A stretch of 64,000 bases of DNA from Candidatus Paralachnospira sangeri (GTDB lineage: Bacteria > Bacillota > Clostridia > Lachnospirales > Lachnospiraceae): assembly GCA_904397815.1 (NCBI GenBank), contig CAJFOT010000113.1:16642-80641 (forward strand). Reading direction: 5' to 3'. Made by a program: the position numbers and the translations under genes. Shown one piece after another: positions 33,559-36,809 of the stretch; positions within the stretch are counted from its first letter, which is position 1, and each line of letters begins with the position of its first letter. The notes under the pieces were generated by a model. It saw only the letters and a list, made by a program, of their open reading frames with translations. It was not told the DNA's origin and did not search any database.

Positions 33559-33755
33559 TGTCAAGAGTTTTCCTGAATACCATGATTCCTTTGCGTTCTG
33601 AAGATGTATTCGCAAAAATATACTGCCAATATTAAGATTAACAGAATTTTCAAATATTTTTCATACTTGCAATATAATTATTAAGCATTTAAAGATATGC
33701 TATATTTATGTTAAATAACAAAATTTTACATTTTGTTGACAAGGAGGGGAGGCCA

Positions 33756-34405
33756 TTGAACACAAAACAGCATATGGAGATATTTGTATATTTTAGTAAT
33801 CTGTGTTTTTAAAGAAAGAATGAGGTAACGATCGGAATTGCAAACCCAACTTGTGTTCAGGCCGCTGAAAACAATCAGCAAATGAACAATTATATCGAAA
33901 ACTATTTAACAAGTGAAATTGAAAAAAGTGTCGATGAAAATGGAGACGCAACCATTAGAGTTACGAATTCCGAATATGGTATCAACGATATATTGGTCTT
34001 AGAAAATGATAGCAAAAACATTCTGCTTAATGGAGAGATTGCTGGATGCTTTACTTCAACAGGCAATACTGATCCATACCTCTTCATGAATCCTACGGCA
34101 CCTTCAAACGCCTCCGAAAATTGGACTTATCGTGGGACAACCGATTATACGATAACATCTACCGGGGCAACAGCTGTAGCTACAGTTCTTGGGATTTTGT
34201 CTTTGCTTCTGAGTCCCGCCATAGCGGAGCAAATCCTGGGGGCAGTTTAGCTACCATTATAGCAACCGGAACTCCCGGCGGTACCCTGACAATCAGTACA
34301 TGGGACAGAACAATCGCTTCTCAGTATTATGTTAAATCAAGTATAAAATTTACTACCGCTACAGGAGAAGTATGGGGGCCCGTTGAAACTATTCATACGC
34401 TTTAA
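33756..34405 (+). pseudogene. Broken secreted small-protein gene (bacteriocin/secreted-peptide-like)
   Basis: RBS AAGGAGGGG, TTG start at 33756, in-frame TAA at 33810, then ...CVQAAENNQQMNNYIENY...SLLLSPAIAEQILGAV* at 34250; the 34121-34405 ORF continues in the -1 frame (LATIIATGTPGGTLTISTWDRT...). Confidence 0.55.
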
Positions 34406-34419
34406 GGAGAAACGCGATA

Positions 34420-34608
34420 ATGACTGACGATATTTGCCGCTCTATCATTATAATTATATGCTTTATGATTGTTATAGCCGTTATCTGGGTGAAAGAATTC
34501 AAAACTGCCAAAAGAAAAGGCGCCAAGATAAGAAGGCAACCTGCATTTATGCTATTATGGATGTTTCTCCTGGGGTGTTATATGTTGTACCGTTTGATAA
34601 GCGCCTGA
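34420..34608 (+). CDS. Small two-TM protein (immunity-like)
   Basis: 62 aa, TM - basic KRKGAKIRRQ loop - TM; paralogous to the next ORF. Confidence 0.6.
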   Translation: MTDDICRSIIIIICFMIVIAVIWVKEFKTAKRKGAKIRRQPAFMLLWMFLLGCYMLYRLISA

Positions 34609-34692
34609 ATCATTGTATCTGTTTATATTGCAGCAAGAAAGACAGATGTTGAATATTGAAATCATTCATACATTTTTGGAAAGGAAATCATC

Positions 34693-34896
34693 ATGCAAGA
34701 CGCTATTCGTGGCTCTGTCATTGTAATAATCGGTTATACCATTGCCACAATCATTGGTCTGGTAAAAAGCGCAAGAAAGGCAAAGAAAAATGGTACCAGT
34801 CTGAAAAAATCAACAGCTTTGTTCATAATATTATGGATGGCTTTCTGGGCTGGCTTTATGGTGTACCATTTCCTGACGAATCCTGTCGTCCAGTGA
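34693..34896 (+). CDS. Small two-TM protein (immunity-like), tandem paralog
   Basis: 67 aa, GSVIVIIGYTIATIIGLVKSARKAKKNGTSLKKSTALFIILWMAFWAGFMVYHFL; RBS aaaggaa. Confidence 0.6.
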   Translation: MQDAIRGSVIVIIGYTIATIIGLVKSARKAKKNGTSLKKSTALFIILWMAFWAGFMVYHFLTNPVVQ

Positions 34897-34936
34897 CATG
34901 CAAACGGAACATATGCTGTCCGCTGCAGTCATACGT

Positions 34937-34974
34937 AAAAAAGACTTCCGGAAATTTTTCTCCGGAAGTCTTTT
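34937..34974. terminator. Intrinsic terminator
   Basis: AAAAAAGACTTCCGGA / TCCGGAAGTCTTTT. Confidence 0.85.
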
Positions 34975-34991
34975 CCATTTCGGCCTGTCAA

Positions 34992-35045
34992 TTATTCGAT
35001 GATGGAAACAACACGTCCTGATCCTACTGTACATCCACCCTCACA
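34992..35045 (-). pseudogene. tuf: 3'-terminal remnant of an EF-Tu gene
   Basis: Minus strand reads *YCEGGCTVGSGRVVSIIE*, matching [17 protein letters not shown] of the intact tuf at 35616. Confidence 0.88.
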
Positions 35046-35070: not shown

Positions 35071-35448
35071 CTATTTTGAAAACAAAGCATCATTTCTGGA
35101 AAGAAGATATACGCAATATTGATTCATACTGATTCCTTCTCTCTGAGAATGCTCTGCCAGTGATCTGTGCAGGCTTCGCGGTATCCTCAATTTAAACTGT
35201 CCGGAATAATTTTCCAGACTGTCTGGCTCATGAATCTCCACTCCTTCTTCAAGTGCTGCCTCAAGCCATGCTTTTTTTGCATCCAACGCATTTGCTATCG
35301 CACTTTCCACCGTCTCACCGCAGGTAATACAGCCGGGCAAATCCGGATAGGAAACCACGAATCCGCCTTCATCCTTATCCTCAACAATTTCCATACGATA
35401 GGACATCGCCATATAATCATCCAGCGTCTTCATCATTATTCGCCTCAC
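35071..35448 (-). CDS. hicB: HicB-family antitoxin
   Basis: DKDEGGFVVSYPDLPGCITCGETVESAIANALDAKKAWLEAALEEG plus C-terminal RHH-like helix. Confidence 0.88.
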   Translation of the reverse strand: MRRIMMKTLDDYMAMSYRMEIVEDKDEGGFVVSYPDLPGCITCGETVESAIANALDAKKAWLEAALEEGVEIHEPDSLENYSGQFKLRIPRSLHRSLAEHSQREGISMNQYCVYLLSRNDALFSK

Positions 35449-35521
35449 TTTCCACTATCTGCCTTACCATTTCTACATATACTTTTTTGATCGGTTCATG
35501 CCTCGGTATTGTGATTGGCAT
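35417..35521 (-). pseudogene. HicA-like toxin remnant (C-terminal part only)
   Basis: MPITIPRHEPIKKVYVEMVRQIV resembles the HicA C-terminus; no N-terminal half upstream. Confidence 0.55.
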
Positions 35522-35551
35522 GAAATCCCAGATTGTAATTAATATATTGCA

Positions 35552-35580
35552 AAAACCCCAGAAACCGAAGTTTCTGGGGC
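35552..35580 (-). terminator. tuf terminator
   Basis: CCCCAGAAACCGAAGTTTCTGGGG stem-loop followed by T-rich sequence on minus strand. Confidence 0.75.
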
Positions 35581-35615
35581 TAATTTCAAATATATATTCT
35601 GATAACAGACTATAA

Positions 35616-36809
35616 TTATTCAATGATCGTAGCAACACGGCCTGATCCTACTGTACGTCCGCCTTCACGAATAGCGAATGTAAGACCCTGCTCCATAGCG
35701 ATGGGGTGAATCAGCTCGATTGTCATTTCTACGTTATCACCAGGCATGCACATTTCTGTGCCTTCAGGCAGGTTGCAAACGCCGGTAACGTCAGTTGTTC
35801 TGAAGTAGAACTGAGGTCTGTAGTTGTTGAAGAAAGGTGTATGACGGCCACCCTCGTCCTTGGTCAGTACGTAAACCTGTGCTGTGAATTTTGTATGGCA
35901 GGTTACAGAACCGGGTTTTGCCAGTACCTGTCCTCTTTCGATCTCGTTTCTCTGCACACCACGCAGCAGAGCGCCGATGTTGTCACCAGCCTGGCCTTCA
36001 TCCAGTAATTTGTGGAACATTTCGATACCGGTGCAGACAACCTTACGGTTTTCTTCTTTCAGACCAACGATTTCAACTTCATCAGATACGTGAATGGTAC
36101 CTCTCTCTACTCTACCAGTTGCAACAGTACCACGGCCTGTGATGGAGAATACGTCCTCGACAGGCATCAGGAACGGCTTATCTGTATCACGTACCGGATC
36201 AGGGATATAAGAGTCAACTGCCTCAAACAGCTCGATGATCTTGTCTCCCCAAGGTCCCATGGGATCTTCCAGAGCCTTTAACGCTGAACCACGGATAATC
36301 GGGGTGTCATCTCCCGGGAAGCCGTACTCATCCAACAGCTCTCTGATTTCCATCTCTACTAACTCCAGCAGCTCTTCGTCGTCTACCATGTCGCATTTGT
36401 TCATGAATACAACAACGTAAGGAACGCCTACCTGGCGAGCCAGCAGGATGTGCTCTCTTGTCTGAGCCATAACGCCGTCGGTAGCAGCAACAACCAGGAT
36501 TGCGCCGTCCATCTGAGCCGCGCCGGTGATCATGTTCTTTACATAGTCAGCATGGCCGGGGCAGTCTACGTGAGCGTAATGTCTGTTGGGTGTCTCATAC
36601 TCAACGTGTGCGGTAGAGATTGTGATACCACGCTCTCTTTCTTCGGGAGCCTTGTCAATCTGATCGAAAGCCACTTCCTCACCTAAACCATATCTTCTGT
36701 TCAGAGTTAAGGTAATAGCAGCTGTTAATGTTGTTTTACCATGGTCTACGTGGCCGATTGTACCAATGTTACAATGGGGTTTGGTTCTTTCAAATTTAGC
36801 TTTAGCCAT
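35616..36809 (-). CDS. tuf: Elongation factor Tu
   Basis: [24 protein letters not shown]. Confidence 0.99.

What the first reader, a model, noticed from the sequence alone, without database searches (positions are those of the whole stretch)
33756..34896. AT-rich orphan locus: decayed secreted-peptide gene followed by two paralogous two-TM immunity-like mini-proteins
A strong RBS and TTG start lead into a frame stopped by TAA at 33810. The same frame continues after the stop with a signal-peptide-end-like CVQAAENN, a ~120-aa body with a hydrophobic helix (TAVATVLGILSLLLSPAIAEQILGA), then a -1 frame continuation (LATIIATGTPGGTLTISTWDRTIASQYYVKSSIKFTTATGEVW). Downstream lie two tandem 62/67-aa ORFs, each TM-basic loop-TM and mutually similar. 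This resembles a bacteriocin/toxin precursor with duplicated immunity genes, the immunity genes surviving after precursor decay. I cannot place the precursor in a named family.
Basis: partly seen in the sequence, partly recalled or inferred. Interest (0 to 1): 0.7.

Follow-up and report, generated by a model that had tools for sequence, protein, structure and literature searches.

The report
Broken bacteriocin-like gene, two immunity-like genes
In a Lachnospiraceae genome, a secreted protein gene that is intact in two related gut bacteria has been broken, while two small membrane-protein genes behind it remain open, which fits a bacterium that lost a bacteriocin-like weapon but kept its shield; no one has tested that function.

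Summary
At 33756-34405 lies a broken gene for a Sec-type secreted protein: an in-frame TAA at 33810 and a frame change near 34247. Intact homologues (200 and 204 aa, signal-like N-terminus, hydrophobic helical hairpin, strongly conserved C-terminus) exist in two other Lachnospiraceae genomes, at least one from rumen. In both, a 57-59-aa two-TM protein gene follows 13-14 nt after the stop. The window has the same 14-nt gap, then two diverged paralogues (34420-34608, 34693-34896). Profiles built only from outside sequences recover both halves and both mini-ORFs (E 7e-22, 2e-12, 2e-20, 3e-8); shuffled frames give nothing. A third genome carries the two-TM gene alone; a sister species lacks the cassette. 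Pfam, NCBIfam, PHROGs, PADLOC, PDB sequences and Foldseek give no significant relative. So the gene pair is a real, rare, unnamed family. Best reading: a secreted membrane-active antibacterial protein with a membrane immunity partner; this lineage lost the weapon and kept two immunity-like genes. Linkage, operon-like spacing, lesions and a solo two-TM copy are shown; toxicity and protection are inferred. A maturation/export partner, a non-antibacterial role, or neutral decay are the main rivals.

The parts
33649..33678 (+). Possible sigma-70 promoter (TTCAAA, 18 nt, TATAAT)
   Evidence: Consensus scan, 10 of 12 matches; not proof of function. It starts at the left break with the sister species (33653), so it would come with the cassette.
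33739..33758 (+). Ribosome-binding site AAGGAGGGG and TTG start (33756) of the broken secreted-protein gene
   Evidence: Sequence
33756..34405 (+). Broken gene for a secreted ~200-aa protein: TAA at 33810; signal-peptide region split over frames; frame change near 34247
   Evidence: Profile from two intact outside homologues matches 33813-34247 (E 1.8e-12) and the C-terminal frame to 34402 (E 7.2e-22)
33813..34250 (+). Body, frame 0: end of signal-like region, beta-rich N-terminal part and first part of the hydrophobic stretch (TAVATVLGILSLLLSPAIAEQILGAV)
   Evidence: 30% identical to G208 over the overlap; found intact relatives on its own at E 7.7e-9 and 2.6e-8
34244..34405 (+). C-terminal piece in the -1 frame (LATIIATGTPGGTLTISTWDR...FTTATGEVWGPVETIHTL)
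   Evidence: 65% identical to the C-terminus of G208; E 2.3e-28 (that model includes this piece); E 7.2e-22 with a model that does not
34420..34608 (+). First two-TM mini-protein (62 aa, net +7), 14 nt after the secreted gene's stop; immunity-like
   Evidence: E 3.2e-8 against a model without window sequences
34693..34896 (+). Second two-TM mini-protein (67 aa, net +7), paralogue; immunity-like
   Evidence: E 2.1e-20 against a model without window sequences
33653..34938 (.). Extent of the accessory stretch absent from the sister species, where a ~300-bp FCD/GntR-type regulator fragment stands instead

Best explanation
This is a decayed member of an unnamed, rare Lachnospiraceae two-gene locus. 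In intact loci the first gene encodes a protein with a Sec-type signal-like N-terminus, a beta-rich N-terminal part, a Gly/Ala-rich hydrophobic helical hairpin and a very conserved beta-rich C-terminus. I propose that it is a narrow-range bacteriocin-like protein whose hairpin enters the membrane of related cells. The second gene, probably read from the same transcript, starts 13-14 nt later and encodes a small basic two-TM protein that would sit in the producer's own membrane and block that insertion or its receptor. In the window lineage the secreted gene has been broken while two diverged two-TM genes are still open, leaving an immune non-producer. Shown: architecture by sequence and prediction, gene linkage, operon-like spacing, the lesions, a solo two-TM gene elsewhere, accessory distribution. 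Inferred: killing, protection, the membrane as target, co-transcription.
For: Conserved tight pairing in both intact loci (gaps 13 and 14 nt) and in the window (14 nt). Signal-like N-termini and a second hydrophobic peak at residues ~128-150 of the intact proteins. AlphaFold2 model (pLDDT 74, pTM 0.67): hydrophobic helices 123-138 and 140-156 between beta strands. Two-TM gene alone in G062, with no secreted remnant in the adjoining DNA. Open two-TM genes next to a broken partner, and two divergent copies. Patchy distribution: 3 of 396 family genomes; absent at the same site in the sister species. Known analogies: tandem non-identical immunity genes and orphan immunity genes in firmicutes (PMC9484751; PMC10598978); small cationic hydrophobic immunity proteins of circular bacteriocins (PMC6131525); Sec-secreted 24-26-kDa antibacterial proteins with a C-terminal hydrophobic helix (PMC13176240).
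Against: No relative has a tested function, and no sequence or fold match to a known bacteriocin or immunity protein was found. Only two intact loci were found. A distant homologue (G409, about 26-29% identical) has no two-TM neighbour. One orphan and one decayed case are few. Absence of the secreted gene elsewhere in G062 rests on sampled searches in which that genome is not listed by name.
Confidence: 0.55

Rival explanations
1. The two-TM protein is a maturation or export partner (as SdpA/SdpB are for the SDP toxin), not an immunity protein; the secreted protein may still be antibacterial.
For: Tight operon-like spacing; the secreted precursor with an internal hydrophobic hairpin resembles SdpC in size and layout (my recollection of SdpC); sdpA and sdpB are needed for toxin maturation (PMC13343845).
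Against: A partner would be useless without its client, yet the two-TM gene stands alone in G062 and is open twice beside a dead client in the window. The distant homologue G409 does without it.
Confidence: 0.15
2. The pair is unrelated to killing: the secreted protein is a surface, adhesion or signalling factor with a small membrane partner.
For: No known toxin family matches; beta-rich predicted structure.
Against: Patchy accessory distribution, a solo two-TM copy, paralogue expansion and a hydrophobic hairpin are more typical of antagonism loci; no cell-wall anchor or binding domain is recognised.
Confidence: 0.2
3. Neutral decay: the whole cassette is dying, and the short two-TM genes are simply not yet hit.
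For: They are short targets (189 and 204 nt against 650 nt); the remnant is recent (C-terminus still 65% identical to relatives).
Against: The solo copy in G062 speaks for independent value of the two-TM gene. This rival does not conflict with the bacteriocin reading, only with present-day usefulness; two or more lesions in 650 nt against none in 393 nt cannot decide it.
Confidence: 0.25
4. The lesions are errors of the metagenome assembly and the gene is intact in the organism.
For: The genome is in 150 contigs and 84% complete; the change near 34247 lies by a run of five G; no reads are at hand.
Against: Neighbouring coding genes (DUF2812, PadR, EF-Tu, EF-G, S7, S12 and others) are full length; at least two separate lesions fall in this one gene, and the damaged signal-peptide stretch is not explained by one miscalled base.
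Confidence: 0.12
5. Programmed recoding (frameshift or stop read-through) makes a full protein from the broken frame.
For: Two frames carry conserved halves.
Against: Intact relatives use one open frame; no consensus slippery heptamer in phase at the junction (sequence); the stop in the signal region would need a second event.
Confidence: 0.02

Closest known systems
Geobacillin 26 / alicyclobacillin 24 (class III, Sec-secreted antibacterial proteins)
   Same: Sec signal peptide, one unmodified protein of about 20-26 kDa, hydrophobic helical segment toward the C-terminus, beta elements (PMC13176240).
   Different: The described core is mainly alpha-helical and the TM helix is near the C-terminal end; ours is beta-rich with a hairpin followed by a conserved beta C-terminus. 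That paper's text does not mention immunity. Sequences of Geo26/Ali24 could not be fetched.
SdpC / SDP system of Bacillus subtilis
   Same: Secreted precursor of about 200 aa with an internal hydrophobic stretch, dedicated membrane immunity (architecture of SdpC from my own knowledge; immunity and maturation genes from PMC13343845).
   Different: No match to the SdpC model TIGR04032 in the genome (the model does ring in B. subtilis) or in the intact homologues; no SdpA/SdpB-like neighbours seen; the immunity-like partner has only 2 TM segments.
Immunity proteins of circular bacteriocins
   Same: Small, cationic, hydrophobic membrane protein encoded beside the bacteriocin (PMC6131525).
   Different: No circular-bacteriocin precursor, DUF95 protein or ABC transporter seen beside the intact loci.
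TspA-TsaI and EsaD-EsaG tandem and orphan immunity arrays of firmicutes
   Same: Non-identical tandem immunity paralogues downstream of a toxin, orphan immunity genes, toxin fragments at the locus; TsaI acts against a membrane-depolarising toxin (PMC9484751).
   Different: Those toxins leave through the type VII system and TsaI is predicted to have five TM segments; here the secreted protein is Sec-type and the partner has two.

Membership tests
SdpC family antimicrobial peptide | Match to NCBIfam TIGR04032 (toxin_SdpC) | tested here: not met
   No match at E<=1 in the genome, while B. subtilis rings among the controls; no SdpC listing for the intact homologues at E<=1
SdpC family antimicrobial peptide | Neighbouring sdpA/sdpB maturation and sdpI/sdpR genes | tested here: not met
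   Not seen by inspection of the ORFs around L010 and L011 (L011 has only 290 nt upstream)
Geobacillin 26-like class III bacteriocin | Sec signal peptide and about 24-26 kDa precursor | tested here: inconclusive
   Hydrophobic N-terminal peak at residue 6 and 200-204 aa in the intact homologues; no signal-peptide predictor available
Geobacillin 26-like class III bacteriocin | Sequence or fold similarity to Geo26/Ali24 | not testable with these tools
   Ali24's plasmid record CP080468 is not held; no Geo26 sequence at hand; no geobacillin model appeared among hits
Bacteriocin-immunity locus (general kind) | Secreted protein gene tightly linked to a small membrane protein gene | tested here: met
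   Gap of 13, 14 and 14 nt in G208, G139 and the window
Bacteriocin-immunity locus (general kind) | Immunity gene can occur without the toxin gene | tested here: met
   G062 solo copy; broken partner in the window
Bacteriocin-immunity locus (general kind) | The secreted protein inhibits other bacteria and the partner protects | not testable with these tools
   Needs experiment
Circular bacteriocin cluster | Circular bacteriocin precursor plus DUF95 protein plus ABC transporter | tested here: not met
   None seen in the ORFs near the intact loci; no Pfam/NCBIfam match of the secreted protein
Cytotoxic necrotizing factor (CNF1) | Pfam PF05785 match above the curated cut-off | tested here: not met
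   16.5 bits against a cut-off of 25 for the window piece only, NCBIfam 10.7 against 950; no match in the intact homologues: chance

The most novel reading that the evidence does not exclude
A new family of Sec-secreted, membrane-inserting antibacterial proteins of gut Lachnospiraceae, with no detected sequence or fold relatives, paired with two-TM immunity genes that persist, multiply and move on their own after the weapon is lost.
Probability: 0.45. Interest if true: 0.6.

Novelty: new variant of a known kind. Interest (0 to 1): 0.42.

Why it matters
Routine bacteriocin mining relies on known models, and none of the searched family libraries sees this pair. If it is antibacterial, it adds an unseen type of weapon in a dominant gut and rumen family, and the window is a case of weapon loss with retained immunity. 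The two-TM gene then becomes a marker for finding further partners.

Tried and rejected
Family libraries: Pfam, NCBIfam, PHROGs and PADLOC gave no match above a curated cut-off for the secreted or the two-TM proteins. The weak CNF1 hit to one window piece was rejected as chance. Phage and plasmid records and viral contigs: no relatives. A first scan of genome contigs with the window body found nothing. PDB by sequence: nothing meaningful. Foldseek against PDB and BFVD: best E 0.03 and 0.02 with low TM-scores, rejected. A single-sequence AlphaFold run was poor (pLDDT 57); the four-row run was used. Weak genome hits L005-L009, L017 and L019 were not counted; the two that were inspected (L005, L008) lie against ordinary solute-binding-protein genes. 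Weak two-TM hits L024-L039 (E 6e-4 to 9e-3) were partial, many inside longer frames, and were not counted. A phylum-wide sample gave no further convincing relative.

Full report
Observation. The reading of the raw sequence is accurate. A ribosome-binding site and TTG at 33756 lead into a frame stopped by TAA at 33810. The same frame is open from 33813 to TAG at 34248-34250, and the -1 frame carries on to TAA at 34403-34405. Two mini-ORFs follow at 34420-34608 and 34693-34896. The stretch is 38-41% GC against 50.7% for the window.

It is more than chance. I built a profile from the two intact outside homologues only and searched all 1670 open frames of 20 aa or more in the window. It picked the two halves of the broken gene (E 7.2e-22 and 1.8e-12) and nothing else. 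A profile from three outside two-TM proteins picked the two mini-ORFs (2.1e-20 and 3.2e-8; the next frame 0.2). Composition-shuffled frames gave nothing better than 0.3. The two mini-proteins align with score 91 against 32 (sd 7) for shuffles that keep the TM and loop layout.

Relatives. The window body alone, used as a query over 249 genomes of the same family, found intact relatives in G208 and G139. They encode 200 and 204 aa with an N-terminal hydrophobic signal-like stretch. The public contigs are OMYS01000019 (uncultured Clostridiales, RUG094) and JAGBNK010000025 (Lachnospiraceae, water deer rumen). They are 61% identical to each other. The window C-terminus is 65% identical to G208, and the body about 30%, so the C-terminal part is the constrained one. 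The family is rare: 3 of 396 sampled family genomes. A more distant member is in G409, 26-29% identical.

Linkage. In both intact loci a 57-59-aa two-TM protein starts 13-14 nt after the secreted gene's stop. In the window the gap from the broken gene's stop is also 14 nt. The two-TM proteins share M-x-D, S-x-I-x-x-I in the first TM segment and WM...Y in the second. A further copy in G062 stands between ilvC and a LysR-type regulator. It has no secreted partner, and the adjoining 320 nt show no remnant in any frame on inspection. The distant G409 protein has no two-TM neighbour.

Accessory nature. The sister species G249 matches the window at about 90% identity up to 33653 and again from 35613. 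Between these points it lacks the cassette and has a fragment of an FCD-domain regulator instead. So the cassette is an insertion or a differential loss in a variable interval between padR and tuf.

Structure. An AlphaFold2 model of the G208 protein with four aligned rows has pLDDT 74 and pTM 0.67. It shows a signal helix, a beta-rich N-terminal part (residues 45-92), a strand (109-118), two hydrophobic helices (123-138, 140-156) and three strands to the end. Foldseek finds no significant match in the PDB or in viral models. No sequence library names either protein.

Mechanism. The favoured account is a secreted membrane-active antibacterial protein with a small membrane immunity partner. The hairpin would insert into the target membrane, and the two-TM protein would block insertion or shield a receptor. 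Support is by analogy: small cationic hydrophobic immunity proteins beside circular bacteriocins (PMC6131525), tandem non-identical and orphan immunity genes in firmicutes (PMC9484751; PMC10598978), and Sec-secreted antibacterial proteins of similar size (PMC13176240). The retained and solo two-TM genes favour immunity over a maturation role, because a maturation partner has no use without its client. Killing and protection are inferred, not shown.

Limits. Only two intact loci and one solo copy are known. The window comes from a fragmented genome (150 contigs, 84% complete), and no reads could be checked. At least two separate lesions in one gene among full-length neighbours make assembly error unlikely but not excluded. 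Whether the two-TM frames are kept by selection or have merely escaped so far cannot be decided from one genome.

Verdict. It is a real, unnamed and rare gene pair, of moderate interest.

Noticed in passing
window 34938-35044 and 35613-35700: The 3' end of tuf and its terminator occur twice. The copy at 34938-35044 matches the sister species' tuf end at 80%, while the real tuf end (from 35613) matches it at 94% over 88 nt. A HicB gene (35071-35448, minus strand) sits between the two, as if inserted at the tuf 3' end while restoring it.
   Followed up: partly
window 35071-35638, minus strand: HicB antitoxin gene (Pfam E 1.4e-14) without a complete HicA. The overlapping 35417-35638 frame has a short tail that looks HicA-like to me, but Pfam finds nothing there.
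   Followed up: partly
L043:5137-5379 (G249): In the sister species the padR-tuf interval holds a fragment of an FCD-domain (GntR-type) regulator instead of the cassette (Pfam E 2.6e-6).
   Followed up: yes
L011:1357-1581: Beside the intact G139 locus lies a 74-aa ORF with a weak match to the end of IS200-like transposase (PF01797, E 0.0045, below cut-off), perhaps a transposase remnant.
   Followed up: partly
L044:4156-4335 (G062): Solo two-TM gene between ilvC and a LysR-type regulator gene, without a secreted partner.
   Followed up: yes
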